Below, one piece after another: positions 1,817-23,740 of a stretch of DNA of 64,000 nucleotides. The notes beneath the pieces were generated by a model. It was not told the DNA's origin, made no database searches, and was given only the letters and a program-made list of their open reading frames with translations. The stretch is taken from positions 143,056,303 to 143,120,302 of the forward strand of contig JAHLJT010009436.1 of NCBI GenBank assembly GCA_031308135.1, written 5' to 3'. This DNA is from Acheta domesticus (taxonomy: Eukaryota; Arthropoda; Insecta; Orthoptera; Gryllidae). Both the position numbers and the translations under genes were made by a program. The stretch's first letter is position 1; every line of letters begins with the position of its first letter.

Positions 1817-1859
<43 letters not shown>
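1817..1859. repeat. (TAA)n microsatellite, 5' flank of the LINE
   Basis: About 14 TAA units end exactly where the unique 5' UTR of the next element begins. With the matching tract at 6021 it brackets the element. Confidence 0.9.
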
Positions 1860-1860
<1 letters not shown>

Positions 1861-2322: not shown

Positions 2323-3676
2323 GTGAACTCGAACTTGCATCCTGCGAATCTTCAATTCAAACCAATGAGCAAAATGGATAGAACAAGCAATGTAATGAAC
2401 CTTAACGTGCCTTGTTCTACCAATGTCCCATACCTGCTCAGAAACCGAGCTAATGTCACCTTGTCGACGTCTGGCCATCCCACGGATGTTAGTCCCAGGG
2501 ACCCAGAGCCGGCAGTAGCTCGAAGCCATCGTCAGAGATGGACCCGGGATGAATTAAAGGAGGTGATGTGGTGCTTTTACTACGCAAAAGCGAAAAATGG
2601 GGGCTCAGAAATAGAAGTTTTCAAGATATGGAGAGAGCGGAACCCAGATATCAGACCTACCCTAGACTCAAAGAAGGTTGCCAGTCAACGACGATACATA
2701 CTCAGCAGTGGAAAATTCACAGCAGAAAAACTTGCTGACATTGAGAGAAATGCGGAGTATGTACTTCGCTCGAACAACCCACATGACGAACATGTAGAAC
2801 TTGAAAATGATGATCCCGTGGAAGGTTCATCTCTTTCCAGTGAAACACACGTCAGTGGTGAAAACTCATCTGGCAATGAATTACACGAATGCGAAATCTC
2901 CTTCGGCGCGAGATAGAAAGAGTTAGTCTACTTCCGTTTGAATCTCGCGAACCGTTGAGGAGAATATAAGAAACTGCCAAAGCTAAAAGAGTGATAGAAA
3001 CCGTGAATTCTGTCTTAAATGAGGTGGTAGAGACCCCAGGCAGAGATCTAGATATTACTGAAATCAATCACATCATATATGCAACTGGATATGTAGTATC
3101 TCAGATAATTTTGGGGCCAGCCAAGAACACCGACGGCCGACAGCAAAACAGAGTAAACAGCTCTGTACCCCCATGGTTGAACAGAATTTGGAAACGGATA
3201 GCCGACACCCGGCGCGAAATATCACTCTTAGCTGAGGCATCTTCTAAATCAATGCACACCTCTAAAGTTCAACGAAAAATATTCAATGTTGAACAAAAAT
3301 ACCAAATTGAAATGACACCAGCAGGCTAATGGTAGTTGAAAAGCTAAAAGAGAAAATTCAAGAATGAGCTCAAAGAATTAGACGTTACAAACGTAGAATA
3401 GATTTCCGTGTACAGAACCGGTTGTTTGAAACAGACGCGAAGAGATTCTATCGCAATCTGACTGAAAAACCGAATGGCAAAGCTGTCACTCCTTCAAAAG
3501 AAGACGTCGAAGCGTTTTGGGCAGGAATCTGGGAGGAGAGCAGATCCTACAACAAAGACGCATCATGGCTTCAATCTGAAGTTGATGCTGCCGATGAACT
3601 TGTAGAAACAGTAGAAGATGTTCACCAATTCTCGGAAGAGGACCTCTTCCAAGCAATTAAGAACATGGGAAACTAG
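2323..3676 (+). pseudogene. Disrupted N-terminal half of the LINE polyprotein
   Basis: The reading frame runs 2323-2916, then needs a shift at about 2885 to a frame ending at 3329, and another shift at about 3327 to the frame of the RT. There are in-frame stops at about 2967 (TAA), 3365 (TGA) and 3674 (TAG). Residues 68-90 of the first part (RQRWTRDELKEVMWCF...) look like the Myb-type DNA-binding motif that sits upstream of RT in R2-like proteins. The last stop falls in the sequence NMGN*KSPGIDK, where a Trp is expected, so TGG to TAG is likely. The middle section (KAKRVIETVNSVLNE... and AQRIRRYKRR...) is the usual R2-like linker. Together these five lesions make the copy non-autonomous unless some are sequencing errors. 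Confidence 0.8.
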
Positions 3677-5917
3677 AAGTCCCCCGGGATTGATAAAATC
3701 CAGATTTATTGGATTAAGAAATTAACAGCAATACATTCTCATCTAGCAAAGGCTGTTAATAAAATTTTTGAAAACCCAAAGGAAATCCCGGAATGGCTCA
3801 CACGCGGCATCACGTATTTGCTACCCAAAGCGGGAGACAGCTCTTTGGCGAAGAACTACAGGCCAATTACTTGTCTGCCAGTACTGTACAAAATTATAAC
3901 TTCAGCCATAGCTGACAAAATGTACAGACATCTAGATAAGAGTCATCTAATGCCAGCTGAACAAAAAGGATGTTGTAAAGGCTCTTATGGCTGTAAGGAA
4001 ATCTTGCTCCTGAATAAAGTCATCTTGAATGATGTAAAGAAACGCAAACGTAATTTGAGCATGGCTTGGATTGACTACCAAAAGGCCTTTGATAGTGTAC
4101 CACACGATTGGATTTTGAAGACCCTGGAGATCTATCGGTTTCATCCTAGACTTATTGAATTTTGCAAGGCTAGTATGAAGTCGTGGAGTACCAGGTTACT
4201 AGTCCACAGCGGAAAGGAAGCAGTAGAAACCAGAAGTATTCAGATTAACAGGGGTATTTTTCAAGGAGATTCACTATCCCCTCTGCTGTTTTGCATTAGT
4301 TTGATCCCACTATCGAGACAGTTGTCGCAAGCTGACTTTGGTTTTAAGCTCCATGGTGATGAAAGGCCAGTATCACATTTGTTTTACATGGATGATCTTA
4401 AACTGTTTGCTAAGAATGAAGCGATTCTCTCCCAAATGCTGTCTGTCGTGAATGACTTTAGCAATGACATCTGCATGAAGTTTGGTCTTGACAAGTGTGC
4501 AAAAATCAATTTAAAAAGAGGGAAACTCACAACGTCTGAGAATACTGAAATTGATACGCACACTGTGATTCAAGATCTTGAGCCAGGTAAAACTTACAAA
4601 TATCTGGGCATTGAAGAATGTGAAACCATCTCGAATGACAGAATGAAAGAGAGAATTCGTAGGGAGTATTATAGGAGAGTGAGACTGGTCCTGCAGTCCG
4701 CTCTGAATTCCAGGAATAAAATTTCTGCAATAGGTAGTTTGGCGGTACCTGTAGCCGAATACAGTTTTGGACTAGTGGACTGGACTGAGCAGGAAATTCG
4801 CACCATGGATCGAAAAACCAGAAAACTGCTAACAATGCATCATGTTGCCCACCCTCGAGCTGATATACATAGACTTTATGTGTCACGTAAGGAAGGAGGA
4901 AGAGGCCTCAGACAAATTGAAGCCTCCTGGCACAACGCAATAGTCGGGATGGGAAAGTATGTAGTCAGCCATCAAGATGACCCTCTAATGATGCAGGTCA
5001 TGAAATCTGACCGAAGAATGGGAAACAGAGGCATTGTTAGTGTAGCTAGAAGCATTGCGAAGAAAACTAGGCAAGACACGTCGAATAACACAGACACTGA
5101 ACTTCTGATGCTGCTAAACATGAAGTGTGAAACACAAAAAATGTTAAAGAAATCGTGGAGAGACAAACCACTCCACGGACAATACCTAAAAAGAATGGAC
5201 AAGGTGCAGATCAATAAAGATCAATCATTTATGTGGCTTAAAAGGGGAAGAATGAAGCCAGAATCGGAAGCACTTGTAATAGCTGCCCAAGATCAGGCCT
5301 TGAGAACACGACATTATGATAAAGCGGTTCTCAAAATTTCCCAAGACGATAAATGCCGCATTTGCCTGGAGCAAGTAGAAACCATTGATCATATTGTCTC
5401 AGCTTGTCCAATCCTAGCAAAGACGGAATACCTGAAAAGACATGACAGGGTGTGTATCTACCTCCACTGGCAGATCTGTACCGCCCTCGAAGTTCCAAAC
5501 ACATGCCCCAAGTGGTACGAACACTCACCAAAACCGGTGACGTCTGTTGGATTGTGTACGATATTGTACGACCAACAAATTCAAACTGATCGCACGATAG
5601 CGGCAAACAAACCGGATATAGTTATCCGGGATTTGTCGAAAAAATCGTGTTTACTTGTCGATGTTGCTGTACCTTGCGATCAAAACGTCGTTACCAAGGA
5701 GGCAGAGAAACGTCTTAAATACAAGAGTTTGGAAATCGAGATCAGCCGAATGTGGGGCGTAAAAGCACAGGTCGTCCCGATAGTTATCGGAGCTCTGGGA
5801 TTTGTTCCGCAAAATTTGTGTAAGAACTTGTCTAAACTCCCAGGTAATCCAAAAGACTGGGAAGTGCAAGAAATCGCTTTATTTGGAACAGCCCACATTT
5901 TGCGCAAAGTATTGTAG
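3677..5917 (+). CDS. Reverse transcriptase and PD-type endonuclease of the Dong-like LINE (open part)
   Basis: This stretch is open for 746 codons from the stop at 3674 to the TAG at 5915; the first Met is at 3818, but the true protein begins upstream. Numbered from that Met, RT motif A is WIDYQKAFDSVPHDW (84-98), motif B RGIFQGDSLSPLLF (145-158) and the catalytic box FYMDDLKLF (189-197). A zinc motif C513-x2-C516-x8-H525-x4-C530 follows. The restriction-like endonuclease is PD (599-600) with the second acidic residue D615 in LLVDVAVP. All catalytic residues are present. The family cleaves target DNA and primes cDNA from the nick. Conservation of this half against the broken N-terminal half suggests fairly recent death. 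Confidence 0.88.
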   Translation, partial: KSPGIDKIQIYWIKKLTAIHSHLAKAVNKIFENPKEIPEWLTRGITYLLPKAGDSSLAKNYRPITCLPVLYKIITSAIADKMYRHLDKSHLMPAEQKGCCKGSYGCKEILLLNKVILNDVKKRKRNLSMAWIDYQKAFDSVPHDWILKTLEIYRFHPRLIEFCKASMKSWSTRLLVHSGKEAVETRSIQINRGIFQGDSLSPLLFCISLIPLSRQLSQADFGFKLHGDERPVSHLFYMDDLKLFAKNEAILSQMLSVVNDFSNDICMKFGLDKCAKINLKRGKLTTSENTEIDTHTVIQDLEPGKTYKYLGIEECETISNDRMKERIRREYYRRVRLVLQSALNSRNKISAIGSLAVPVAEYSFGLVDWTEQEIRTMDRKTRKLLTMHHVAHPRADIHRLYVSRKEGGRGLRQIEASWHNAIVGMGKYVVSHQDDPLMMQVMKSDRRMGNRGIVSVARSIAKKTRQDTSNNTDTELLMLLNMKCETQKMLKKSWRDKPLHGQYLKRMDKVQINKDQSFMWLKRGRMKPESEALVIAAQDQALRTRHYDKAVLKISQDDKCRICLEQVETIDHIVSACPILAKTEYLKRHDRVCIYLHWQICTALEVPNTCPKWYEHSPKPVTSVGLCTILYDQQIQTDRTIAANKPDIVIRDLSKKSCLLVDVAVPCDQNVVTKEAEKRLKYKSLEIEISRMWGVKAQVVPIVIGALGFVPQNLCKNLSKLPGNPKDWEVQEIALFGTAHILRKVL

Positions 5918-6020
5918 AGGCACCGACAGTCCCTAGATCTACCCCTTAGGTAGCTGGTTGCAACCTGGAGTAGATTTTATATTCAGCCGACACATAACAT
6001 CTTTAGTCGTGATTTAGAGG

Positions 6021-6048
6021 AATAATAATAATAATAATAATAATAATG
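6021..6048. repeat. (TAA)n microsatellite, 3' flank of the LINE
   Basis: Nine TAA units directly after the 3' UTR, mirroring the tract at 1817. Confidence 0.9.
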
Positions 6049-6675
6049 TAATAAAATAACAATATAAATAAAATTGATCTTTTGGACAGATACATACGAT
6101 GCGTGTAATGTGCTTTGCAGCATTGAATCGATGTATATCAATGGCATTCGTTACCATTCATTGCTCTACCAACAATGAAAACAGTTAATATACCTTTAGA
6201 AACTAAAGATATCACACTCAGGGAAGAACGAATTTCTCATAATTAAATAACTTTACAAAAGAGTAAAAGGAAATTTTTAGTGGCGATTAACACAATGGTT
6301 TAGTTTTCTTTCCTAAAGTATTTACAATGAGGAAGATGTGTTTCATGAAAAATCACTTACTTTTGCTACTATTTTTTCGATTTTTCAAACCTCTAACCTA
6401 GGGAACACGATGTTCCAGGAAGGTGATGTGCGCAACGTTCTCAATTTTATGCGTAGATTACGAAAATACATCATATCGCGTCACAGTGTTTAAATATACC
6501 GTATCAAGTCGTATTTTGCTATGAATGCAAATACATTTAAAATGCTCCTGTAAGAAATGTAGAATAAATACGCAAAAAATACATTTAAAAATAAAATATT
6601 TGTTCAGTTGATCTATGTCTATCGACTTTTATCACCAAAATTAGGCTTTTGTGTTTGTCTGTTTTTTATTTCCCC
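6049..6675. other. AT-rich spacer, nothing recognised
   Basis: No open frame, repeat match or motif that I can support. Confidence 0.4.
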
Positions 6676-6783
6676 CTATACGTACTATATACGGAGTAAT
6701 ATACGTAGTATAGGGAAAGTTATGTAATGCTGCGCGAAAAAATGGCCAATTTTCGCCAGAAAAAAAATCGTTGCCGGGCCGTG
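6676..6783 (-). repeat. Repeat A, 3'-terminal fragment
   Basis: Reverse-oriented copy of the terminal part of repeat A. It has the ACTTTCCC/GGGAAAGT-related palindrome with TATACG motifs, then the segment containing GCGCGAAAAAATGGCC. It matches 34310-34430 and, inverted, 21940-22045. Confidence 0.75.
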
Positions 6784-6832
6784 ATAACGAATTATATTCT
6801 CTTTTTACGAAGTATTCGTAAGGCGAAACAGT

Positions 6833-7380
6833 AACTAGTGGTGCTACAGACTGGCACAGAATTTCCCGTATTAGTTTTCTATTTCCTTGCGTCTGCGCTA
6901 GTTATACGGAATTGCCACATACTCATTCCACCTGCCATCTATTGCCCAAATTACATTTTTTTGATATTTTCTTAATTTTTCGGTTTCCTAATGGTAGAAC
7001 GGAAATATTCATTTTACAATATTAAAGAACACAAAAACCTAATCCTAAATGGCAATTTTCTTGCAAACATTTTGTGCCGTTTCACAGAAAATGGCGTTTT
7101 AGCGCAACTAAATACGCAAAATTTGAAGCTCTACTTCACAGATAATTTTCGAGTTTTCAAAATACTTCATTTACACTCCCAAATATAATAATGTTTACAA
7201 ATTGCTGGTAATGTGCATATTAAAGATGTGGGAGATCTTCGAAAAAATTACATTTGTATAATTTTTTAAAAAACTAAAAAATAACTCAATATAAGCTTTA
7301 CGTCATATTAAAGAGTGTAATTAGCGCTATCCGTTACAAAAGTTTGAAGAGAAAAATTGGCAACCATATATGAGAAAATG
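6833..7380 (+). repeat. Repeat A, 5' fragment
   Basis: Starts with ACTAGTGGTGCTACAGA, a border shared with the copies at 12673, 19168, 22043 and (inverted) 35838. It is AT-rich, with no coding capacity and about 85-90 percent similar to the others by eye. Confidence 0.8.
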
Positions 7381-7542
7381 TTCTGTATACATCCCCTTGT
7401 GAGTGCATCTGTCCATATCTCGGACCCGCGAGTGAGATTCGTGCAATGTGATGTGAGACCGTAGACTGAGTTATTAAAGACGAATAGTAGCCGTTCGATC
7501 TCGGTGCTTCCTCATTTGCAATGAGCTTGGTTATTGCTCCCG
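7381..7542. other. Unassigned spacer between repeats
   Basis: Not shared with the inverted locus near 37 kb; no feature seen. Confidence 0.4.
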
Positions 7543-8190
7543 GTCACTCGTAAAACTTTATCTGCCACCTATCGAATAAGTTCACCAAATGCGAGTTGGA
7601 TGTCGAATGTGATGCTCACATGTTTCACGAAAGGCTGTGTCCCGATGACGTCTGTATCGTCAGCCATAAGGATCAACGTCGGTGTCTGTTTTCTTGTCAA
7701 GAAAGCGAGACCGAGTTCGTGATTTTCCATCCATGCTCGTACATGCCGTATGACTTGATTGAGTTTCCACTGAACCTCTATCGTAGAGTGTGCTTGTACG
7801 ATCGCTGCGATGTGGGCATACCCTAGGCTGCGTGTTCTGGCATTTTTATTTACATGTCTATGTTGTCATATACGACATTCTATGAGCTTAGGTCCTAAGA
7901 TCGATCGTTGCACTAATCGGCAAAGGTGGCTCAGGGCAACAATTGATGTCAATGCAGTCCCTCTGGCCGGGAGGTTCTGTGATTCGAGTTCTGACGGTGG
8001 CAGGATTTTCGACTTGTTAGCTAGGTCGAATTCAGCCGTCTGGAAGAGAATTCTAGCGGACATCTGCTCTGATCGGTAGTTTTCCGTGGTTTCTCCGATC
8101 CGACACTAGGCGAATGCCGAAGCACTTGCCTAACGGGCCACGGAACGCGCGCGATCTTTCCTTCCTCTTTCTTGACCTATCCGCACCCCT
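7543..8190. repeat. Block B repeat (648 bp)
   Basis: Nearly identical to 36714-37361 in inverted orientation. One end carries the dead R1-type RT fragment; the remainder is GC-richer and of unknown origin. It abuts a repeat A copy at 8191 in the same relative order as at the inverted locus, where 870 bp separate the two. Confidence 0.85.
7545..7830 (-). pseudogene. R1/Jockey-type LINE reverse transcriptase fragment
   Basis: On the minus strand this reads GYAHIAAIVQAHST, then LNQVIRHVRAWMENHELGLA, then FLTRKQTPTL, and stops at ELIR. The pattern is the YADD-to-KTE...YLG segment downstream of the catalytic box of R1-like non-LTR elements (family consensus about YADDIA..., LNQVMxRVxxWM). The catalytic DD is replaced by AH, and residues between LA and FLT are missing. 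It is therefore a dead fragment. The same lesions occur at 37078, so decay preceded copying of the block. Confidence 0.65.
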
Positions 8191-8688
8191 ACAGAAAGGC
8201 ACAGACTTTCCCGTATTGGGTTTCTATTTCCTTGGGTCTTCGCTAGCTATTCGGAATTGCCACAAACTCTTTTTTGCCAGCTGTCATCTATCACCTCCAA
8301 AAGTACATTTTTTTGTCATTTTCTTAATTTTTCGGTTTCCTATTGGTAGAACGGAAACATTAATTTTAGAATATTAAAGAACATGAAAACCTAGTCATAA
8401 ATGGCAATTTTCTTTTAAAAATTATGTGTCGTTTAAGAGAAAATGGCGTTTTAGCGCTACTAAAAGTGCGAAATTTGAAGCTCATTTTCAGAGAAACTTT
8501 TTGAGTTTTCAAAATACTATATTTGAAACACTTACACTCACAAATATAATGTTTACAAATTGCTGGTAATGTGCATATTAAAGATGTGAGAGAACTTTAA
8601 AAAAATTACATTTATATAATTTTTGAAAAAACAAAAATAAACTCAAAATAAACTTTACGCTGAACTAAAGAGTGTAATTAGCACTATC
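8191..8688 (+). repeat. Repeat A, 5' fragment
   Basis: Begins ACAGAAAGGCACAGACTTTC, directly joined to block B. It ends where similarity to 12673-13200 stops, at about GTAATTAGCACTATC. No coding capacity. Confidence 0.8.
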
Positions 8689-9048
8689 AAGCTTATATTT
8701 TACCCTGGCAAGCTTATATCATGACGAAATAATGTATTTGGTATTGTTTAAAAATTTGTAAATAAATAAAACAGTCGATTCTCTTTCTTATGTCGTTATT
8801 TCTACTATCTTTAGAGATTGAACTTGAGATTGAAAAAAATCTGTACGTGATAGAGAAAAACTGACTTCATTTTCAGTTTCAGGACACTAAAAAAACATTA
8901 GATAAGATGATATTATCAAATCAAATTTCGAAAAGTTTTCTTCTGTAGACCTATGTAATTTTAATAAGTAATGTATATGCTACATTTACATTATTGATTA
9001 ATTACAGAGCTTCAATGAAAATCATACAAGTTAAATTAATTGTCTTTA
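8689..9048. other. AT-rich flank, duplicated at 15306
   Basis: No gene. From about 8800 the sequence is repeated at 15306 onward, the start of the contig right of the N gap. The last five bases (CTTTA) may be the target-site copy of the copia element. Confidence 0.5.
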
Positions 9049-9261
9049 TATTAATTTGTTTTGTATAAATGTTATTTATTACTGAACTTAAATATACAAG
9101 GTAACAGTATTCACAAACGTCCGTAACAAAACAAGTCCGAGCACGCACTCACTGGCACTGCACTGCCTCGACAGACGAACTTGACCTCTTCTCAGTTCAA
9201 AGAGTTCTCAGATACGTACACAGATGGCGTTGCTGTCTGCATTTTTCTTTTCATACTAACA
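9049..9261 (-). repeat. 3' LTR of the copia element
   Basis: 213 bp; read on the minus strand it begins TGTTAGTATG and ends near CAAATTAATA. The terminal CA has mutated to TA. It differs from the 5' LTR at many positions and by an internal indel, so the insertion is old. Confidence 0.85.
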
Positions 9262-9272
9262 CTTCCTTCAAA
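9262..9272 (-). promoter_or_regulatory. Polypurine tract of the copia element
   Basis: The minus strand reads TTGAAGGAAG directly before the TGTTAG start of the 3' LTR, the expected position of the plus-strand primer. Confidence 0.5.
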
Positions 9273-9319
9273 AGAAAAAATCAAATGAATACAAACTATA
9301 CAAAATCAACTATATTTAA

Positions 9320-10110
9320 CAGTCTGTGGACGCCATCTTCTTAATCCCAATCCTCTCACGTAGCATCTCCAATCTAACCCTCCCCAGAGATATAGTCAGT
9401 AGATCAGCAAGCTGATTAGTTCCGTCTATTTGCTCCAATTCCAGATCTCCATCCAAGAATCTCTCCCTTACATAGAAATCGCGAACTTCGATGTGCTTTG
9501 ATCTGCAATGATATTCAAGGTTTCAGATAGTTCTAGAGCACTAACATTTTCGATGTAGAGCGTAGGAGATTTTTCCACCGTTTCCAGCAATTCAGATAGT
9601 AATATTTTCAGCCAGATTAAATCCTTAGCTCCTTCACTTGCTGCTATTATTTCAGCTTCTGTAGTTGACGTTGCTCCAGACTTCTGCAACTGACGTCCAC
9701 GAAACTGTTCCATCATTGAAGGTTGCAATGACACCTGTCGAACGTCTTGTCTTCGTGTCACCGGCGTAGTCAGCATCACTGTATACCTTCAAACCTTGAC
9801 CGTGCCTGAAGACGATTTCATAGTTTACAGTGCTCTTCAAATATCTAAATATTCTTTTCACTTGATTCCAGTCATGATTTGTAGGATTTTCCATGGCCCG
9901 AGCTGCTTGATTAATTGCGAAAGCAACATCAGGACGTGTAGCTGTATTCGGGTACATTAAAGAACATACTGCCTCACGATAAGGTATCGTGACGTTTTCT
10001 CCTTCATCGTTGTTCTCGCGCCCAATTGGAGTAGACACTCCGTTCGACTCGGCCCTTCCAAATCTTTCCAAAACCTTTCGTGTGTAGTCTTCTTGATCAA
10101 TTGTTATAGA
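9320..10110 (-). pseudogene. Copia RNase H and C-terminal end of pol
   Basis: Recognisable segments in order are MYPNTATRPDVAFAINQAAR, then YSDADYAGDTKTRRSTG (the RNase H YxDADWAGD-like motif), then STTEAEIIAASEGAKDLIWL, then the tail ending KKMASTDC with a stop near 9322. At least two frameshifts separate them. RNase H degrades the RNA strand during reverse transcription. Intact copies would carry the catalytic D and E residues in one frame. Confidence 0.85.
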
Positions 10111-10125
10111 TCCTTCTTCATTTTG

Positions 10126-10660
10126 CTATATTCTCATGCCCAAGAAGTTTCTGAGAGATCCTCTTGTTGTATAAAGTTCCTGCTGTAACATTTCCATAAA
10201 TTCCTCAAGTTCTTCTATATCAGTTGAAACAATCACACCGTCATCAACGAAAATTGCAACATACACATGTTTCCCATCTCTCTTGCGGTAGAACAGACAT
10301 GGATTAGCATCACTGTTTTTAAATCCAGCATTCTTCATAAACTTCTCAAATAGTTTGTTCCAGCAGCGCGGCGCTTGTTTTAGGCCATACAAACTTTTCT
10401 TCACATAACACACTCGTTCAGTATTGTCCTCAAAACCTTCCGGTTGTTCCTATACACTTCTTCTTCAAGCATGCCGTTCAAAAAAGCGGTTTTGACATCA
10501 AATTGAGCGAGCGTCATTCCAAATGCAGCAGCCACCGCCAACAAGATCCGAATGGTTTCATATCGTGCAACAGGGCTGAATGTCTCTTCATAATCAATTC
10601 CCTGTGTTTCTACGAAAACTTTTGTGACCAATCGAGCCTTGAAGCGGATCTTTCCGCTGT
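10126..10660 (-). pseudogene. Copia reverse transcriptase
   Basis: Canonical copia RT motifs are present: [20 protein letters not shown] and [17 protein letters not shown] (motif A), SLYGLKQAPRCWN (motif B) and YVAIFVDDGVIVS (catalytic box). A break near 10410 puts the two halves in different frames, and a stop follows FLGMRI at 10126. The residues needed for catalysis are all present, so loss of function comes from the frame breaks. Confidence 0.9.
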
Positions 10661-10884
10661 ACCAATAGTTTCTAACAGAAGACCCAGCGATTCTTCAGGA
10701 TTTGCACATCTTTTGGACGTACGACGAACACCCAGCTATCATTTTGCTTTAATCCAGTTCTTCTTTAAGGGCCTTCAACTACTCTTCTCTATCAGGAAAC
10801 TGCAGTCTTCAATGTAGGAATTTGGATTCTTGTTTTCAGTGATCGATGATCCGGCCATGTAACTAAATCTCCGCTGGTCATCCA

Positions 10885-11460
10885 CTATGGTTTCTTCGAT
10901 TCATTTTTTTCTTTCAATTCATTTCGTTTGTTTTTCCTTGTTGTCTCTTCTTTGACATCTTTTTCAGCTGGAACATCACTTCCCCCGGAGCGTGACACTG
11001 GTACAAATTCTTCAGCTTTACTCCATTCTTCTTCCTTTTCATCGTCGACTTCTGGTTTTTTGTACATCGGATGAAGCAAGTTTTCACATGAATTTTCAAG
11101 TTTGTCGGTATTGACGCGCACATTGCAGACAACTTCAGGCTTGAATCTCACATAGTGGTCAGGACTATCTTCCTTTGAGTCTGAATCCAGACCCTCCATC
11201 CCTGTCGTTCACGTATCCAACCAGATGTCCATGAACAGCGTTATCGTCAAAATTAGAGTGGATGTTCGTGTGGATGTGCACGTTGCATTCTGTTCCGAAA
11301 ATCTTCAAATGATTGAGACTTCCTACTGGTCGTCCATGCCACAATTCATAAGGAGACTTAGTTTCAATGGAAGACGCGATTCAGGAGGTATGTGGCAGTA
11401 TTGCATGCTTCTGCCCACAGTTCTTTTGACAACTTGCACGCGGCTTCAGTAAAGTTATCG
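10885..11460 (-). pseudogene. Copia integrase C-terminal region and linker
   Basis: The minus strand encodes KLSKELWAEACNTATYLLNR (the typical copia integrase tail), then SPYELWHGRPVGSLNHLKIF, then HVRFKPEVV-like and acidic/lysine-rich linker sequence ending ELKEKNESKKP. The catalytic DDE core of the integrase is absent because of the internal deletion. The linker remains open for 104 codons. Confidence 0.8.
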
Positions 11461-12322
11461 ACTGAGGCACCCATGACATGCGTCATAAACGCTACACTTG
11501 CAACAGACTGGCTTCTGTTTCCACCAGCGCCATCTGTCTTCTTCTCCGGACACTCTGCTGCCCAATGACCCAACTGCTTACATTTGGGGCATGGAAACTT
11601 CTGTTTTGCACATTGAACATTCTTCTTTGATTTTTCCCCGGTGTCACTTTTATGACAAGGATTTTTGTTAGGACCACCGTGTGCAACAAATGCAAGGGAA
11701 TATCGATTCGATATTCCCTTGATCACGCAATTCAATCGCGCACAATTTTTCAATCAACAAATTCACAGTTTGATTTTCCGACGAAATCGTGTCCCACAAG
11801 TTTTTAAAATTGTCATATTCTTTTCTCAGGATACATAAGATACGGCCATTCAAAATTCTCTCGGACAAAGTATTTTCTTTGTTCTTCGTCAGTTCATCAT
11901 TCAAATCCAAGAACAACTTCTGCAGTTTCGCGACATGCTTACTGATTTCTTTGTCGTCACGCGGAAAATGACTCGATCATCATATTTAGCCGTTGCGTAG
12001 TGCTGCGTTCAAACCGCGCACTCAGTTTTGTCCAAATCTCTGCAGCACTGGTGCAATTCAACACAAGCTCGGCAATAGTTTTTCCTAGCGCATCTGCTAA
12101 CAAACTTGCCGCTTTTACGTCGTCCTTTTTCCATTGCTGATGAATTGCTTTCTGTGCCGCAGTTGCATAAACTCCCAAATCAGGACACGCTCGCGAACCG
12201 TTAACAATGTCTTCGAGTTAATATGCACGCAACACCATCGAAATATGCCACTTCCACTTTTCCCAGTCTTCAGGTCCTTCAAGCTTATCCACTTGTATTT
12301 TGTAGTCATTCCCGGTAGCCAT
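11461..12322 (-). pseudogene. Copia gag with zinc knuckle
   Basis: The likely start is the Met at 12322 (MATGNDYKIQVDKLEG...). Codon 35 is a TAA (12218-12220). The frame then continues as the copia gag (UBN2-type) core, KSWKTKLSARFE-like (here AAEIWTKLSARFERSTTQRL). A shift near 11957 leads to LFLDLNDELTKNKENTLSER, and another precedes the zinc knuckle CPKCKQLGHWAAEC (CX2CX4HX4C) near 11560. Both duplicated copies share the TAA, so that lesion is real rather than a sequencing error. Confidence 0.85.
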
Positions 12323-12438
12323 GTTTGTTGTTTACACGCAAGGTTCCAGTTCAACCGTATATAAAAAATCCAGCACGTTTTCTTCAGACGTTCAATTTCG
12401 GCTCCACTCACTAGAGAATGCAATTCACACGTGGCCTT

Positions 12439-12449
12439 GGCCCATAACC
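12439..12449 (-). promoter_or_regulatory. Primer-binding site (initiator tRNA-Met internal type)
   Basis: Immediately inside the 5' LTR the minus strand reads GGTTATGGGCC, complementary to the anticodon region of initiator tRNA-Met (GGCCCATAACC). Drosophila copia is known to prime from such an internal tRNA-iMet fragment. Confidence 0.75.
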
Positions 12450-12667
12450 TGTTAATTTGTCTTGTATAAACGTTATTTATTACTGACCTAAAATGTACAA
12501 GGTGACAGTATTCACAAACGTCCGTAATAAAACAAGCCCGAGCACGCACTGGCACTCAGCTGCCTCGACAGATGAACTCGCCCTCTTCTCAGTTCAAAGA
12601 GTTCTCAGATACGTACACAGATGGCACAGATACGTGCACAGATGACATTTTTCTTTTCATACTAACA
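12450..12667 (-). repeat. 5' LTR of the copia element
   Basis: 218 bp with TGTTAG...TTAACA termini, i.e. the usual TG...CA ends inside a 5-bp inverted repeat (TGTTA/TAACA). Compared with the 3' LTR it carries a short internal duplication of an ACAGATG-containing motif. Confidence 0.85.
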
Positions 12668-12672
12668 CTTTT

Positions 12673-13992
12673 AACTAATGGTACAGAATGGCACAGACTT
12701 TCCCGTATTAGTTTTCTATTTCCTTGGATCTTTGCTAGCTATTCGGAATTGCCACATACTCTTTCTTGCCAGCTACCATCTATCACGGCGAAAAGTTCAT
12801 TTTTTTGACATTTTCTTAATTTTTCGGTTTCCTATTCGTAGAATGGAAATATTAATTTTAGAATATTAAAGAACATAAACTAGTCCTAAATAGCAATTTT
12901 CATTTAAAAATTATGTGCCGTTTTTAAGAAAATTGCGTTTTAGCGCTACTAAAAATGCAAAATTTAAAGCTCATTTTCACAGAACATTTTTGCGTTTTCA
13001 AAATACTTTATTTGAAGTCATTTCAAGCACGTATACTCACAAATATAATAATATTTACAAATTTCTCGTAATGCGCGTATTAAAGATGTGAGAGAACTTT
13101 CAAAAAATTACAATTATGTAATTTTTGAAAAAAACAAAAAAAAGCTCAAAATAAACTTTACCCTATACTAAAGAGTGTAATTAGCACTATCCGTTACAAT
13201 AGTTTGAAGAAAAAAATTGCTGCCATTTATTAGAAAATGGCGTTTGAGCGTTTCTGAAAATGCGAAATTTTGAGCTACTTTTCACAGAAAACGGTTGTGT
13301 TTTCGAGACATTTTCTTGACATTATTTAAAGCACATGTACTCGTAAATATAATAATGTGAAAGAATCGCAGCTAAGGTAAATATTATCGACGTGAGAAAC
13401 ATGGGAAACAATTTACATTTTTGTAATTTTTGAAAAAACCAACCAATAGAGCAATATGGCTTTTATGTCATTTGATAGAGTACATTTACCACTATCCCTA
13501 CCAAAAGTTTAAAGAAAACATTTGGAGCCGTTTTTGAGAAAATCTAGTTTTTGTACTTTTTTAAAATTGCACATATTGCACGCAATATTGCGCGAAAACT
13601 ACTAAAATTTTCAAAAAAATGTACATGACCTTAAACAAAGAACTCACTTTGGAGAACACATTTTATTTGAAGAAAAATCTCTATCTTCAATTTTGTAGTT
13701 GGAGAAAGACTCCGAAAAAAAATTTCAAACTTTTACAATTTTCGAAAATTCAGAGTTATCCGTGAAAATCGGACCTATGCCATGTTAATAAGTGTATGTT
13801 ACTCTATTCATACAAGAAATTTAAAGAAAACATTTGGAGCCGTTTTTGAGAAAATTTCGAAAATCCCCAGGGGCTTCATGTAAAGTACCCCCAAATTTTG
13901 AAGAATCTTTTTTCAAAATCTCAAAGCTTCGACTAGAACCAGATCATTTGGGAAATATCCATTTTGGAAGAAATCGTACGTATGGTTTAGGC
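12673..13992 (+). repeat. Repeat A, long copy interrupted by hAT
   Basis: Runs from the ACTAATGGTACAGAATGGCA border to GTTTAGGC, where a hAT element is inserted. It is duplicated at 19168-20486. No supported coding capacity; short open frames here are shared only with the duplicate. Confidence 0.8.
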
Positions 13993-14305
13993 CAGACCTG
14001 CACAACACCTGCTCCCGCGGGCATTCTGCACTTGCGAGCTGATCGTCTGCCCATGGCAGCGCCGAAAGTGCAAGTAGTAAGGAGTAGGAAGCTTTGCGGG
14101 GAGGGGAGAAGTCTGACGTAGCACGACGCGGCGCGTACATTGAATGCCTGGGCGTCTAATAATGATCCATGCTTCAAATTAAATGCTCATTTCTTTAAAT
14201 GGATTATGTCTAGTATTTTAAGTTACCAGGGTCATAATTCACTGTTTACGTTCTGTGCACTACTGTATATCCACCTTTTTATCCATCACTGTATGTATTT
14301 TCATT
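13993..14305 (+). mobile_element. hAT element, cut off by the assembly gap
   Basis: Starts CAGACCTGCAC after GTTTAGGC (13985-13992) exactly as the complete copy at 20487. It ends at the N run, so only its first 313 bp are present. Confidence 0.85.
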
Positions 14306-15305
14306 NNNNNNNNNNNNNNNNNNNNNNNNNNNNNNNNNNNNNNNNNNNNNNNNNNNNNNNNNNNNNNNNNNNNNNNNNNNNNNNNNNNNNNNNNNNNNNN
14401 NNNNNNNNNNNNNNNNNNNNNNNNNNNNNNNNNNNNNNNNNNNNNNNNNNNNNNNNNNNNNNNNNNNNNNNNNNNNNNNNNNNNNNNNNNNNNNNNNNNN
14501 NNNNNNNNNNNNNNNNNNNNNNNNNNNNNNNNNNNNNNNNNNNNNNNNNNNNNNNNNNNNNNNNNNNNNNNNNNNNNNNNNNNNNNNNNNNNNNNNNNNN
14601 NNNNNNNNNNNNNNNNNNNNNNNNNNNNNNNNNNNNNNNNNNNNNNNNNNNNNNNNNNNNNNNNNNNNNNNNNNNNNNNNNNNNNNNNNNNNNNNNNNNN
14701 NNNNNNNNNNNNNNNNNNNNNNNNNNNNNNNNNNNNNNNNNNNNNNNNNNNNNNNNNNNNNNNNNNNNNNNNNNNNNNNNNNNNNNNNNNNNNNNNNNNN
14801 NNNNNNNNNNNNNNNNNNNNNNNNNNNNNNNNNNNNNNNNNNNNNNNNNNNNNNNNNNNNNNNNNNNNNNNNNNNNNNNNNNNNNNNNNNNNNNNNNNNN
14901 NNNNNNNNNNNNNNNNNNNNNNNNNNNNNNNNNNNNNNNNNNNNNNNNNNNNNNNNNNNNNNNNNNNNNNNNNNNNNNNNNNNNNNNNNNNNNNNNNNNN
15001 NNNNNNNNNNNNNNNNNNNNNNNNNNNNNNNNNNNNNNNNNNNNNNNNNNNNNNNNNNNNNNNNNNNNNNNNNNNNNNNNNNNNNNNNNNNNNNNNNNNN
15101 NNNNNNNNNNNNNNNNNNNNNNNNNNNNNNNNNNNNNNNNNNNNNNNNNNNNNNNNNNNNNNNNNNNNNNNNNNNNNNNNNNNNNNNNNNNNNNNNNNNN
15201 NNNNNNNNNNNNNNNNNNNNNNNNNNNNNNNNNNNNNNNNNNNNNNNNNNNNNNNNNNNNNNNNNNNNNNNNNNNNNNNNNNNNNNNNNNNNNNNNNNNN
15301 NNNNN
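14306..15305. other. Assembly gap, 1000 N
   Basis: Exactly 1000 undetermined bases, a conventional scaffold-gap size. Open frames running through it are meaningless. The flanking sequences overlap (see the finding on duplication). Confidence 0.99.
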
Positions 15306-15553
15306 TTCTACTATCTTTAGAGATTGAACTTGAGATTGAAAAAAAATCCTTGACGTGATAGAGAAAAACTGACTTCATTTTCAGTTTCAGGACACTAAAA
15401 AAACATTAGATAAGATGATATTATCATAAAATATTCGAAAAGTTTTTCTCTGTAGACCTATGTAATTTTATAAGTAATGTATATGCTACATTTACATTAT
15501 TGATTAATTACAGAGCTTCAATGAAAAATCATACAGTTAATTAATTGTCTTTA

Positions 15554-15759
15554 TATTAATTTGTTTTGTATAAATGTTATTTATTACTGAACTTAATATA
15601 CAAGGTAACAGTATTCACAAACGTCCGTAACAAAACAGTCCGAGCACGCACTCACTGCACTGCACTGCCTCGACAGACGAACTTGACCTCTTCTCAGTTC
15701 AAGAGTTCGCAATACGTACACAGCTGCGTTGCTGTCTGCATTTTTCTTTCATACTAACA
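15554..15759 (-). repeat. 3' LTR, duplicate copia
   Basis: Matches 9049-9261 with several single-base deletions. Confidence 0.8.
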
Positions 15760-18700
15760 CTTCCTTCAAAAGAAAAAATCAAATGAATACAAACTATACA
15801 AAATCAACTATATTTAACAGTCTGTGGACGCCATCTTCTTAATCCCAATCCTCTCACGTAGCATCTCCAATCTAACCCTCCCCAGAGATATATCAGTAGA
15901 TCAGCAAGCTGATTAGTTCCGTCTATTTGCTCCAATTCCAGATCTCCATCCAAGAAATCTCTCCCTACATAGAAATCGCGGCTTCGATGTGCTTTGATCT
16001 GCAATGATATTCAAGGTTTTGTATATAGTTCTAGAGCACTAACATTTTCGATGTAGAGCGTAGGAGATTTTTCCACCGTTTCCAGCAATTCAGATAGTAT
16101 ATTTTCAGCCAGATTAATCCTTAGCTCCTTCACTTGCTTCTATTATTTCAGCTTCTGTAGTTGACGTTGCTCCAGACTTCTGCAACTGACGTCCACGAAA
16201 CTGTTCCATCATTGAAGTTGCAATGACACCTGTCGAACGTCTTGTCTTCGTGTCACCGGCGTAGTCAGGCATCACTGTATACCTTCAAACCTTGACCGTG
16301 CCTGAAGACGATTTCATAGTTTACAGTGCTCTTCAAATATCTAAATATTCTTTTCACTTGATTCCAAGTCATGATTTGTAGGATTTTCCATGCCCGAGCT
16401 GCTTGATTAATTGCGAAAGCAACATCAGGACGTGTAGCTGTATTCGGGTACATTAAAGAACATACTGCCTCACGATAAGGTATCGTGACGTTTTCTCCTT
16501 CATCGTTGTTCTCGCGCGCCCAATTGGAGTAGACACTCCGTTCGACTCGGCCCTTCCAAATCTTTCCAAAACCTTTCGTGTGTAGTCTTCTTGATCAATT
16601 GTTATAGATCCTTCTTCATTTTGCTATATTCTCATGCCCAAGAAGTTTCTGAGAGATCCTCTTGTTGTATAAAGTTCCTGCTGTAACATTTCCATAAATT
16701 CCTCAAGTTCTTCTATATCAGTTGAAACAATCACACCGTCATCAACGAAAATTGCAACATACACATGTTTCCCATCTCTCTTGCGGTAGAACAGACATGG
16801 ATTAGCATCACTGTTTTTAAATCCAGCATTCTTCATAAACTTCTCAAATAGTTTGTTCCAGCAGCGCGGCGCTTGTTTAGGCCATACAAACTTTTCTTCA
16901 CATAACACACTCGTTCAGTATTGTCCTCAAAACCTTCCGGTTGTTCCTATACACCTTCTTCTTCAAGCATGCCGTTCAAAAAAAGCGGTTTTGACATCAA
17001 ATTGAGCGAGCGTCATTCCAAATGCAGCAGCCACCGCCAACAAGATCCGAATGGTTTCATATCGTGCAACAGGGCTGAATGTCTCTTCATAATCAATTCC
17101 CTGTGTTTCTACGAAAACTTTGTGACCAATCGAGCCTTGAAGCGGATCTTTCCGCTGTACCAATAGTTTCTAACAGAAGACCCAGCGATTCTTCAGGATT
17201 TGCACATCTTTTGGACGTACGACGAACACCCAGCTATCATTTTGCTTTAATCCAGTTCTTCTTTAAGGGCCTTCAACTACTCTTCTCTATCAGGAAACTG
17301 CAGTCTTCATGTAGGAATTTGGATTCTTGTTTTCAGTGATCGATGATCCGGCCATGTAACTAAATCTCCGCTGGTCATCCACTATGGTTTCTTCGATTCA
17401 TTTTTTTCTTTCAATTCATTTCGTTTGTTTTTCCTTGTTGTCTCTTCTTTGACATCTTTTTCAGCTGGAACATCACTTCCCCCGGAGCGTGACACTGGTA
17501 CAAATTCTTCAGCTTTACTCCATTCTTCTTCCTTTTCATCGTCGACTTCTGGTTTTTTGTACATCGGATGAAGCAAGTTTTCACATGAATTTTCAAGTTT
17601 GTCGGTATTGACGCGCACATTGCAGACAACTTCAGGCTTGAATCTCACATAGTGGTCAGGACTATCTTCCTTTGAGTCTGAATCCAGACCCTCCATCCCT
17701 GTCGTTCACGTATCCAACCAGATGTCCATGAACAGCGTTATCGTCAAAATTAGAGTGGATGTTCGTGTGGATGTGCACGTTGCATTCTGTTCCGAAAATC
17801 TTCAAATGATTGAGACTTCCTACTGGTCGTCCATGCCACAATTCATAAGGAGACTTAGTTTCAATGGAAGACGCGATTCAGGAGGTATGTGGCAGTATTG
17901 CATGCTTCTGCCCACAGTTCTTTTGACAACTTGCACGCGGCTTCAGTAAAGTTATCGACTGAGGCACCCATGACATGCGTCATAAACGCTACACTTGCAA
18001 CAGACTGGCTTCTGTTTCCACCAGCGCCATCTGTCTTCTTCTCCGGACACTCTGCTGCCCAATGACCCAACTGCTTACATTTGGGGCATGGAAACTTCTG
18101 TTTTGCACATTGAACATTCTTCTTTGATTTTTCCCCGGTGTCACTTTATGACAAGGATTTTTGTTAGGACCACCGTGTGCAACAAATGCAAGGGAATATC
18201 GATTCGATATTCCCTTGATCACGCAATTCAATCGCGCACAATTTTTCAATCAACAAATTCACAGTTTGATTTTCCGACGAAATCGTGTCCCACAAGTTTT
18301 TAAAATTGTCATATTCTTTTCTCAGGATACATAAGATACGGCCATTCAAAATTCTCTCGGACAAAGTATTTTCTTTGTTCTTCGTCAGTTCATCATTCAA
18401 ATCCAAGAACAACTTCTGCAGTTTCGCGACATGCTTACTGATTTCTTTGTCGTCACGCGGAAAATGACTCGATCATCATATTTAGCCGTTGCGTAGTGCT
18501 GCGTTCAAACCGCGCACTCAGTTTTGTCCAAATCTCTGCAGCACTGGTGCAATTCAACACAAGCTCGGCAATAGTTTTTCCTAGCGCATCTGCTAACAAA
18601 CTTGCCGCTTTTACGTCGTCCTTTTTCCATTGCTGATGAATTGCTTTCTGTGCCGCAGTTGCATAAACTCCCAAATCAGGACACGCTCGCGAACCGTTAA

Positions 18701-18946
18701 CAATGTCTTCGAGTTAATATGCACGCAACACCATCGAAATATGCCACTTCCACTTTTCCCAGTCTTCAGGTCCTTCAAGCTTATCCACTTGTATTTTGTA
18801 GTCATTCCCGGTAGCCATGTTTGTTGTTTACACGCAAGGTTCCAGTTCAACCGTATATAAAAAAATCCAGCACGTTTTCTTCAGACGTTCAATTTCGGCT
18901 CCACTCACTAGAGAATGCAATTCACACGTGGCCTTGGCCCATAACC

Positions 18947-19162
18947 TGTTAATTTGTCTTGTATAAACGTTATTTATTACTGACCTAAAATGTACAAGGT
19001 GACAGTATTCACAACGTCCGTAATAAAACAAGCCCGAGCACGCACTGGCACTCAGCTGCCTCGACAGATGAACTCGCCCTCTTCTCAGTTCAAAGAGTTC
19101 TCAGATACGTACACAGATGGCACAGATACGTGCACAGATGACATTTTCTTTTCATACTAACA
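18947..19162 (-). repeat. 5' LTR, duplicate copia
   Basis: Matches 12450-12667 with two one-base deletions. Confidence 0.85.
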
Positions 19163-19167
19163 CTTTT

Positions 19168-20486
19168 AACTAATGGTACAGAATGGCACAGACTTTCCCG
19201 TATTAGTTTTCTATTTCCTTGGATCTTTGCTAGCTATTCGGAATTGCCACATACTCTTTCTTGCCAGCTACCATCTATCACGGCGAAAAGTTCATTTTTT
19301 TGACATTTTCTTAATTTTTCGGTTTCCTATTCGTAGAATGGAAATATTAATTTTAGAATATTAAAGAACATAAACTAGTCCTAAATAGCAATTTTCATTT
19401 AAAAATTATGTGCCGTTTTTAAGAAAATTGCGTTTTAGCGCTACTAAAAATGCAAAATTTAAAGCTCATTTTCACAGAACATTTTTGCGTTTTCAAAATA
19501 CTTTATTTGAAGTCATTTCAAGCACGTATACTCACAAATATAATAATATTTACAAATTTCTCGTAATGCGCGTATTAAAGATGTGAGAGAACTTTCAAAA
19601 AATTACAATTATGTAATTTTGAAAAAAACAAAAAAAAGCTCAAAATAAACTTTACCCTATACTAAAGAGTGTAATTAGCACTATCCGTTACAATAGTTTG
19701 AAGAAAAAAATTGCTGCCATTTATTAGAAAATGGCGTTTGAGCGTTTCTGAAAATGCGAAATTTTGAGCTACTTTCACAGAAAACGGTTGTGTTTTCGAG
19801 ACATTTTCTTGACATTATTTAAAGCACATGTACTCGTAAATATAATAATGTGAAAGAATCGCAGCTAAGGTAAATATTATCGACGTGAGAAACATGGGAA
19901 ACAATTTACATTTTTGTAATTTTTGAAAAAACCAACCAATAGAGCAATATGGCTTTTATGTCATTTGATAGAGTACATTTACCACTATCCCTACCAAAAG
20001 TTTAAAGAAAACATTTGGAGCCGTTTTTGAGAAAATCTAGTTTTTGTACTTTTTTAAAATTGCACATATTGCACGCAATATTGCGCGAAAACTACTAAAA
20101 TTTTCAAAAAAATGTACATGACCTTAAACAAAGAACTCACTTTGGAGAACACATTTTATTTGAAGAAAAAATCTCTATCTTCAATTTTGTAGTTGGAGAA
20201 AGACTCCGAAAAAAAATTTCAAACTTTTACAATTTTCGAAAATTCAGAGTTATCCGTGAAAATCGGACCTATGCCATGTTAATAAGTGTATGTTACTCTA
20301 TTCATACAAGAAATTTAAAGAAAACATTTGGAGCCGTTTTTGAGAAAATTTCGAAAATCCCCAGGGGCTTCATGTAAAGTACCCCCAAATTTTGAAGAAT
20401 CTTTTTTCAAAATCTCAAAGCTTCGACTAGAACCAGATCATTTGGGAAATATCCATTTTGGAAGAAATCGTACGTATGGTTTAGGC
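19168..20486 (+). repeat. Repeat A, long copy interrupted by hAT
   Basis: Same as 12673-13992; here the continuation of the repeat is visible beyond the hAT, at 21780-22042. Confidence 0.85.
20479..20486. repeat. Target-site duplication GTTTAGGC (left)
   Basis: Perfect 8-bp direct repeat with 21772-21779, on the two sides of the hAT element. Confidence 0.92.
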
Positions 20487-21771
20487 CAGACCTGCACAAC
20501 ACCTGCTCCCGCGGGCATTCTGCACTTGCGAGCTGATCGTCTGCCCATGGCAGCGCCGAAAGTGCAAGTAGTAAGGAGTAGGAAGCTTTGCGGGGAGGGG
20601 AGAAGTCTGACGTAGCACGACGCGGCGCGTACATTGAATGCCTGGGCGTCTAATAATGATCCATGCTTCAAAATTAAATGCTCATTTCTTTAAATGGATT
20701 ATGTCTAGTATTTTAAGTTACCAGGGTCATAATTCACTGTTTACGTTCTGTGCACTACTGTATATCCACCTTTTTATCCATCACTGTATGTATTTCATTT
20801 TCTAATATTTTTTAAAGAAAATAACATGCTCATTGTGACTATTAAGCATTATTTTAAAGCAATAGCTTTAAAATATATGCTTATATGTAAGAAAAAAATA
20901 TTATTTAATTCTATCTAACAAAAATTGCAATTTAATAATTGATTGTTCACCACGAATGTTATAATCTCCAAATCCTAGGAAAATGAACAAAATCATGAGA
21001 GCAATCTCTCACATCAAGATTGACATAAAAATATAATATGTGGCAATTCCAAGAAGGGTAATGTTTAATAGCACATTTGTGACCATTTTTCCCATTATGA
21101 AACTGAATAAAAGAGATCAACGAGCAAACTTCTGTGACGATATGTTACGAACAATCATAGGGTAATTATGGGCATTGGTTAAATAGAATGCGAAGGGCTC
21201 TATATTTTATACGATGTCGTAAACGACTCTACACTTGTCAGAAATTAGAACAGAAAATAATCATGACTTTTTTTAAGAACAATATGTTTTTGCTTAGAGA
21301 GAACAGTCTTATTCAATTAAACATAGTTAATAAAAAATAGTTTATTGCTGTCATCATCAAACAAAAACAATTCAGTATCAAAATTTTGTATTTAGAACAA
21401 CACTAAATTTGTGATTACATCGTAGCAAAGCGATTTACATTGTAAGCCCTAAAAGCAATTATAATACTTGGTGTCGAAATCTAATATGTATAATTCGTTG
21501 TAGTTTCATATTTCGCCCTGTCATGTAACGAGAACAAACATTTGCAATATAATACAAAAGGCAATATTTCTTGAACTGTATATGACCGTCATGTTCTTGC
21601 CGATTGCTCTTTAAATTTACGCGCTATCTTTCGAATTGCACATTCTGATTGGTGGTCCCCACTCCTAGATTGGGTCTCATCCCCACCCACCATCGAATTT
21701 CTCATTTGCTTCCGAGTTGCCCGCACGCAGCTCCTGAGGTCAGTGAAAGTGCAAAATGATGTGCAGGTCTG
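20487..21771. mobile_element. Non-autonomous hAT transposon, complete
   Basis: 1285 bp, bounded by terminal inverted repeats CAGACCTGCAC and GTGCAGGTCTG (11 bp perfect) and by the 8-bp duplication GTTTAGGC. CAG...CTG ends with 8-bp duplications are diagnostic of hAT. The subterminal parts also hold related motifs (CCCGCGGGC near the left end, GCCCGCACGC near the right). No transposase frame is present; the interior is AT-rich. It interrupts repeat A: joining 20486 to 21780 restores GTTTAGGCGCTAGCAGTGTT, as seen uninterrupted at about 34556-34570 inverted. Confidence 0.92.
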
Positions 21772-21779
21772 GTTTAGGC
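21772..21779. repeat. Target-site duplication GTTTAGGC (right)
   Basis: See the left copy. Confidence 0.92.
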
Positions 21780-22042
21780 GCTAGCAGTGTTCGCAGACGG
21801 ACGGACGTTTTATTTCAATTGGGTTTTCGGTATCAAGGACCTAGAAAACAGGGTTTCTGGCTACACCATGTGTTAGGGGACATTTTTTCTTAATTTAGCA
21901 CCTGGTTTTATCCACTTTTTCGTTTTCACGTCCCGGCAATGAATTTTTTCCGCCGAAAATTGGCCATTTTTTCGCGCAGTATTACTTAACTTTCCCTATA
22001 CTACGTATATCACTCCGTGTATACGTACGTATACGGGAAAGT
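21780..22042 (+). repeat. Repeat A, 3' end after the hAT insertion
   Basis: Matches the 3' third of the full copy at 34301-35838 and ends with a terminal palindrome, ACTTTCCC...GGGAAAGT, rich in TATACGTA. Confidence 0.85.
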
Positions 22043-22185
22043 AACTAGTGTTGCTACAGAATGGCACAGACTTTCCCATATTAGTTTTCTATTTCCTTGG
22101 GTTTTCGCTAGCTATATGGAATTGCCACATACTCTTTCTTGCCAGCTGCCATCTATCACCGCCAAAAGTACATTTTTTTGTATAC
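22043..22185 (+). repeat. Repeat A, next unit's 5' end
   Basis: The 5' border (AACTAGTGTTGCTACAGAAT) follows directly on the 3' end of the preceding unit, giving a head-to-tail junction. The similarity breaks off after about 140 bp. Confidence 0.8.
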
Positions 22186-22490
22186 CAGTATTATAAACAA
22201 CCCTTTTACATTAAGAAAATCGTTCATAGTGTGGCATATTTTTGCACGAATCATTACGTCATCGCTATTTCTGCACGAAATATTAGTATTATCCATCACT
22301 GACGTAATAGTCACGGCCCCTATATATTTTCATTTATATACATTTCATACTATACATTTCATTTATATTTCCTTCATAAAGAAGGCAGTGGTACCATATA
22401 AATAGATTGCAGTGTTCACAGTATAATCAAATACGTTATGAAAAAACTTACTTTTAAAAACTGATTTATTAATTTATTACTCCTTTAAAA

Positions 22491-23165
22491 TTATGTTTTG
22501 TTTTTATTTGGTAATATAACAAGAACAACGTAATAAGAACAAAAACATGAAATTAATTCTTGTGAACATGTACATTTATTGTACAATTTGATAAATTGTT
22601 CAGTGACACTCCAGAACATGCATTTATATCTAAAATGCTTGTTTTTTTCTTTGCTTTCTGCACTAACCAATATCTTGTTAGCTATTTGAATCTTGTTATT
22701 CACCGATTCTTCGATGTATGAATCGGCTACACTTGTAGACCGCCATCCTCCATGACGTTTAAGTGTAGTGGTATCACCACCGTTATCTGCGAGAAACGTC
22801 GCGGATGTTCTCCTAAACGAATGGCCAGAGTACTTTTCTGCATTTGGTAATTTTAAAAAATTTGCTATATTTTTTGGTATTTTCGCAAATATATTGATAC
22901 CAATTGGATTGCAGGTGCATTTGCCATGATTGTAAAACAAAAACGTTTTTTTGTGTTTAACATGTAAGGGTATTAAGGAAATGTATTTTTTACAGACTTC
23001 AACATAATTAAATTCTTCACTGGATACGATAGTAAATATTCCGGGCTTGTCATTTTTTGTCGCTTTAATGTTTACTATCAAAACAGAACCTTCTTCTTTT
23101 ACATCGTTGATGCACAAATTGTACAATTCGACACGTCTACCAAATATGCCAAAAATAGCAAGAAC
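22491..23165 (-). CDS. Catalytic exon of the tyrosine recombinase
   Basis: Open for 224 codons from the acceptor at 23166 to the stop at 22491. It holds all four catalytic positions of the family, with the Tyr about 60 residues from the end of the conserved core. The C-terminal tail is Cys- and Lys-rich and not conserved-looking. Two residues usually present before the first catalytic Arg (GAxRR) appear deleted. Confidence 0.65.
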   Translation of the reverse strand, partial: VLAIFGIFGRRVELYNLCINDVKEEGSVLIVNIKATKNDKPGIFTIVSSEEFNYVEVCKKYISLIPLHVKHKKTFLFYNHGKCTCNPIGINIFAKIPKNIANFLKLPNAEKYSGHSFRRTSATFLADNGGDTTTLKRHGGWRSTSVADSYIEESVNNKIQIANKILVSAESKEKNKHFRYKCMFWSVTEQFIKLYNKCTCSQELISCFCSYYVVLVILPNKNKT

Positions 23166-23740
23166 CTGAAAATCATACCAGTTATAATACAATACACCAG
23201 TTAATAAATAAAACCTATTTTTGCCACTGTCATTATTATACCTTCATTAAAAGAAAAGTTTCATCATCAGCTTTTGTAAGAAGTGTGTTTACATCTTGTT
23301 GGGAAAATACCATTGCCTTTATAAGTTGATATCCACACTTACTTGTTTTATAAGTAAACTTACTTTATGAAAAGTTCCAATATCAATATTCTCTTTGATC
23401 TTTAGCATTTCCTTTAATTTGGAATAAGTGCACCATAGTGTCGACGCGTTACATGCTGTGGACTTAATGTTTAAAGAAGCATTAAATTAACAAACGCCTT
23501 TATTCTAGCATGTGCATTATACTAACTTAACCAAACTGCTCCGAAAGATACGAAAGAACAGCAGCTTTGCATAATAAATTTGCATATTTTCTATCCATCC
23601 ATTTCCTTAACTTTAAGTACTCTTTCTCATAGAGTTTGCAAGACTTTTTCGGTATCATAGCTTTTTCTGCCTTTGCAGCTTCTTCCACAATTTCTCTAGA
23701 CAAATTATGTTTGAATTTGAAAAAGAGATCGACTTCAGAT
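22491..23740 (-). pseudogene. Crypton-like tyrosine recombinase with introns
   Basis: Three coding blocks on the minus strand: 23532-23740 (SEVDLFFKFKHNLSREIVEE to LSEQF, donor GTTAAGT), about 23242-23486 (STACNASTLWCTYSKLKEML to ETFLLMK, donor GTATAAT) and 22491-23165 (VLAIFGIFGRRVEL onward, acceptor TTTTCAG). The 76-bp last intron is in phase 0. Catalytic residues are visible: Arg in GRRVEL, H-x-x-R in GHSFRRTSATF, His/Trp in KRHGGWRS, and the nucleophile Tyr in DSYIEES. This is the R-H-R-H/W-Y set of tyrosine recombinases as found in Crypton elements. A one-base shift near 23340 and an unclear first splice acceptor suggest a decayed copy. No reverse transcriptase is nearby, which argues against DIRS. 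Family assignment is from motif recognition only. Confidence 0.7.

What the first reader, a model, noticed from the sequence alone, without database searches (positions are those of the whole stretch)
8800..20800. The 1000-N gap joins two contigs that overlap by about 5.5 kb: a false duplication
15306-20800 repeats 8800-14305 in order and orientation, down to the same copia insertion, the same in-frame stop in gag and the same hAT at the same base. The left contig ends inside the region, and the right contig starts at its beginning. Differences are mostly one-base indels concentrated next to the gap, as at an unpolished contig end. The simplest reading is one locus counted twice; a recent tandem duplication or two haplotypes are the alternatives.
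Basis: partly seen in the sequence, partly recalled or inferred. Interest (0 to 1): 0.75.

Follow-up and report, generated by a model that had tools for sequence, protein, structure and literature searches.

The report
One locus counted twice by assembly
About 5.5 kb of an animal chromosome appears twice around a gap, most likely because two overlapping pieces of the assembly were laid end to end instead of merged; it is an ordinary assembly error rather than a real duplication.

Summary
8800-14305 (end of the left contig) repeats as 15306-20799 (start of the right contig) across a 1000-N gap. The overlap is dovetailed to the first and last base and is 99.0% identical.

The window lies in an unnamed 2.33-Gb assembly. 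An independent unplaced contig, C5121 (14,091 bp), runs from window 1608 through ONE copy of the region and on to 22222 without a break.

At 35 sites where the copies differ, C5121 sides with the left copy at 33, with the right at none, and ties at 2. The differences therefore belong almost all to the right copy, and they crowd its first 1.1 kb.

At all 86 positions in the overlap where C5121 differs from the left copy by a substitution, the right copy agrees with the left. So the copies carry the same haplotype. This points to a 'false homotype duplication at a contig boundary', a published error class (PMC8081667, passages seen). A very recent true tandem duplication with its junction in the gap is not formally excluded without reads, but is unlikely.

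The parts
8800..14305 (+). first representation of the locus (3' end of the left contig); the better consensus
   Evidence: aligned end to end with 15306-20799 at 98.99%; backed by C5121 at 33 of 35 difference sites, 2 ties, 0 against
14306..15305 (.). 1000-N scaffold gap
15306..20799 (+). second, redundant representation (5' end of the right contig), with private differences, mostly one-base, crowded in its first 1.1 kb
9051..12670 (-). degraded copia-type LTR retrotransposon (LTR-like repeats 9051-9264 and 12452-12670, 84.8% alike) inside the left representation; its counterpart is about 15556-19165
   Evidence: LTR pair; RVT_2, SH3_retrovirus, zf-CCHC, Retrotran_gag_2 on minus-strand pieces
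12673..13992 (+).
   Evidence: other full or partial copies at 34562-35838, 6832-7380, 8190-8688 and 22043-22181; no inverted repeat at its ends found; divergence

Best explanation
The left and right contigs overlap by about 5.5 kb of the same haplotype. The assembler did not merge them, and the scaffolder placed them side by side with an arbitrary 1000-N spacer. Shown: the dovetail overlap, the same haplotype in both copies, the private error load at the right contig's start, and an independent contig that joins both flanks through one copy. Inferred: that these private differences are sequencing or consensus errors; that the break was caused by the 1.3-kb repeat, where the alternative sequences diverge by 4-7%, which would make the assembly graph branch; and that the overlap is about one read long.
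For: End-to-end dovetail. C5121 aligns from window 1608 through a single copy to 22222. At the 35 difference sites C5121 backs the left at 33, the right at 0, tie 2; C603 backs the left at 31, the right at 2, tie 2. The right copy shares the left's base at 86 of 86 sites where C5121 differs from the left, and at 61 of 62 for C603. Left/right differences in 9700-13900 are 17 indel events; the single substitution column that one search counts there is an alignment shift at 13279, which reads as one indel. Left/C5121 differences in 12600-13900 are 76 substitutions to 6 indel events (Fisher p about 2e-14 for 0:17 against 76:6). In-window relatives, read by eye from the alignments (the other LTR and other copies of the repeat), put 13 of 14 differences on the right copy. 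The query 8800-10300 matches full length at only four places: left, right, C603 and C5121 (40 of 893 candidates scored).
Against: No reads, depth or k-mer counts are available. Three different sequences (window, C603, C5121) exist at this locus, more than one diploid individual should have, so C5121 could be a paralogue rather than an allele; that would weaken it as a bridge. No other 1000-N gap was seen in the 120 kb of neighbouring sequence fetched, so whether such overlaps are usual in this assembly is unknown. At 13279 and 13673 C603 sides with the right copy, and at 13673 the repeat copy at 34562-35838 does too.
Confidence: 0.95

Rival explanations
1. A very recent true tandem duplication on this haplotype, whose junction lies in the gap.
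For: It gives the same dovetail geometry, and the near absence of substitutions would fit a very young event.
Against: The differences are mostly one-base changes, largely of run length, that belong to the right copy and crowd at its contig end, not an ordinary mutation pattern. C5121 shows a single-copy arrangement. Of the four full-length matches, none shows a junction: C5121 runs on into the right flank and C603 ends inside the region.
Confidence: 0.03
2. Heterotype false duplication: the two copies are the two parental haplotypes placed in tandem.
For: Alternative haplotype-like contigs do exist at this locus (C603, C5121).
Against: The right copy carries the left's base at 86 of 86 C5121-diagnostic sites, and at all 36 sites where C603 and C5121 agree against the left. 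There is no substitution between the copies over 4.66 kb. Two alleles that are identical here could not be told from one.
Confidence: 0.01
3. Two separate insertions or gene conversion between repeats gave two similar loci.
For: The region is rich in repeats.
Against: The match includes about 230 bases before the first LTR that, among the 40 scored of 893 candidates, were matched at these four places only, and both copies share the same gag frame breaks.
Confidence: 0.01

Closest known systems
[quoted passage not shown] passages seen)
   Same: Same-locus sequence dovetailed at two contig ends, tandem copies with a gap between them after scaffolding, unequal consensus quality.
   Different: Read depth and k-mer copy number, also used there, could not be tested. 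That 5.5 kb is about one read long is assumed.
False heterotype duplication (same paper, passages)
   Same: Tandem copies separated by a gap in one scaffold.
   Different: Here both copies carry the same haplotype.
False duplications surveyed in PMC9516828 (passages seen)
   Same: A gap between the duplicated pair is one of the listed marks.
   Different: Depth and linked-read criteria not testable here.

Membership tests
False homotype duplication at a contig boundary (PMC8081667) | duplicate copies end exactly at contig ends and dovetail, with a scaffold gap between | tested here: met
False homotype duplication at a contig boundary (PMC8081667) | no haplotype-specific variants between the copies | tested here: met
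   86 of 86 and 61 of 62 diagnostic sites shared; the one exception sits at the indel site 13279, where the alignment shifts. Tested on contigs, not on reads as in the paper
False homotype duplication at a contig boundary (PMC8081667) | consensus quality differs between the copies | tested here: met
   C5121 sides against the right copy at 33 of 35 sites, 2 ties
False homotype duplication at a contig boundary (PMC8081667) | anomalous read depth; k-mers with more copies in the assembly than expected | not testable with these tools
   no reads held
False homotype duplication at a contig boundary (PMC8081667) | overlap often about as long as a corrected read | not testable with these tools
   overlap 5.5 kb; read length unknown
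False heterotype duplication | the copies carry different haplotypes | tested here: not met
True tandem duplication | sequenced junction between the copies | tested here: inconclusive
   the junction would lie in the N gap; C5121 shows a single-copy arrangement

The most novel reading that the evidence does not exclude
A real, very recent tandem duplication carried only by this haplotype, absent from the version in C5121, that broke the assembly at its own junction.
Probability: 0.03. Interest if true: 0.15.

Novelty: not a real feature. Interest (0 to 1): 0.08.

Why it matters
It matters only for the quality of this assembly. The copia element and flanks here would be counted twice in a repeat or gene census, and the scaffold is too long by the 5.5-kb overlap plus the part of the 1000-N spacer that stands for nothing. 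The unplaced contigs C603 and C5121 add further versions of the same locus, which suggests (inference) that the assembly was not fully purged of duplicates.

Tried and rejected
Two haplotypes: set aside because of the diagnostic sites. Separate insertions: set aside because of the shared flanks. Geometry as sole proof: rejected, since a tandem duplication with a gap at its junction looks the same. A base rate of overlaps at other 1000-N gaps was attempted, but 120 kb of downstream chromosome (12 stretches of 10 kb) held no run of five or more N. A paper search for the gap-size convention found 896 papers with at least 5 of 6 terms and listed 20; the term '1000 Ns' had 0 occurrences in each of the 20, and none was opened. 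A search for false duplications listed 4 papers; of two of them passages were seen, of the other two only the listing. The organism was not identified. For C603, 4 of 35 sites do not back the left copy: 2 favour the right copy, 2 lie beyond its end. The script also printed a binomial on an illustrative 49 of 51; that figure is not used. The column tally (83 columns) includes alignment artefacts at the trimmed end and is superseded.

Full report
Observation. The window has a single N run, 14306-15305, of exactly 1000 bases. The last 5506 bases of the left contig (8800-14305) align with the first 5494 bases of the right contig (15306-20799) at 98.99% identity, from the right contig's first base to the left contig's last base. 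The other same-strand matches between the two contigs among the 120 longest rows are dispersed repeats, at most 575 aligned columns long and under 92% identical.

Differences. An affine alignment gives 51 events: 44 indels (29 gaps in the right copy, 15 in the left; 40 are one base; 36 of those lie in runs of at least two equal bases, against 48% of bases in such runs) and 7 substitutions. All 7 substitutions lie at 8922-9643, and none in the remaining 4.66 kb. Density is 32.7 per kb in the first 1.1 kb of the right contig and 1 to 6 per kb elsewhere; 36 events in 1101 bases against 15 in 4405 gives Fisher p about 6e-15.

Which copy is odd. Inside the window, and read by eye from the alignments, the partner LTR puts 11 of 11 LTR differences on the right copy, and other copies of the 1.3-kb repeat put 2 of 3 there and 1 on the left. 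The left copy has 9 stop-to-stop frames of at least 100 aa, the right 4. From the whole genome, the query 8800-10300 matches at full length in only four places: the two copies in the window and two unplaced contigs, C603 (20,827 bp) and C5121 (14,091 bp) (42 matches listed, 40 of 893 candidates scored). Grouped into 35 sites, the 51 events were checked against both contigs. C5121 supports the left at 33, the right at 0, tie 2; C603 supports the left at 31, the right at 2 (13279 and 13673, inside a block where C603 itself diverges), tie 2 where C603 does not reach.

One copy bridges both flanks. C5121 aligns with the left side from window 1608 to 14305 and with the right side from 15306 to 22222, with one representation of the shared region in between. 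Its right flank matches window 20500-22040 at 98%, while the other genome places listed reach 94% at most (40 of 6355 candidates scored), so this flank looks like the same locus and not merely the same repeat.

Same haplotype. Against the window, C5121 and C603 show 19-34 substitutions per 500-base bin in 12500-13900 and up to about 4% in parts of the flanks (more in the first, poorly aligned bin), but hardly any across 9000-12500. At the 86 positions in the overlap where C5121 has another base than the left copy, the right copy has the left's base at 86; for C603, at 61 of 62, the exception being at the indel site 13279. Divergence between versions here is mostly substitutions (76 to 6 indel events between left and C5121 in 12600-13900), whereas left and right differ over 9700-13900 by 17 indel events; the single substitution column counted there is the alignment shift at 13279, which reads as one indel (p about 2e-14). 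The copies are therefore the same haplotype, most likely read twice with unequal quality. Two alleles that are identical over this stretch could not be told from one.

What it is. This matches the published class 'false homotype duplication: overlapping sequences at contig boundaries', described in passages of PMC8081667 as dovetailing sequence that scaffolding turns into tandem copies with a gap between, told apart by differing consensus quality among other marks. PMC9516828 (passages) lists a gap between the copies among the marks of false duplications. Mechanism inferred: the 1.3-kb repeat with diverged alternative versions made the assembly graph branch near 12.6-14.0 kb; the left contig ends about 0.3 kb past this repeat, and C603 also ends within it.

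Limits. There are no reads. Dovetail geometry alone does not exclude a true tandem duplication whose junction lies in the gap. Three distinct versions of the locus suggest pooled individuals, or a paralogue among the unplaced contigs. No second gap was found in 120 kb of neighbouring chromosome, so the assembly-wide rate is unknown.

Noticed in passing
G000 C603 and C5121 against window 1600-14305: Three mutually different versions of one locus (60 substitutions between C603 and C5121 in 12600-13900), more than one diploid individual should give: pooled individuals, a paralogue, or poor consensus.
   Followed up: partly
window 6000-12500: C5121 has 2 substitutions against the window over 6.5 kb, but about 1-3% before (5% in the first bin) and up to 7% after: sharply bounded identical blocks between versions.
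   Followed up: no
window 3677-5917: 746-codon open frame with RVT_1 reverse transcriptase and a zf-RVT match below its cut-off: a non-LTR retrotransposon or remnant (inference).
   Followed up: no
window 22491-23243 (-): Open frame matching the Phage_integrase family (tyrosine recombinase), possibly from a DIRS- or Crypton-like element (recalled, not tested).
   Followed up: no
window 7543-8190 and 36714-37361: 648-base inverted pair 98% identical: two closely related copies of an unidentified repeat.
   Followed up: no
window 63510-64000: G+C-rich tandem array with a 10-base unit running to the window end.
   Followed up: no
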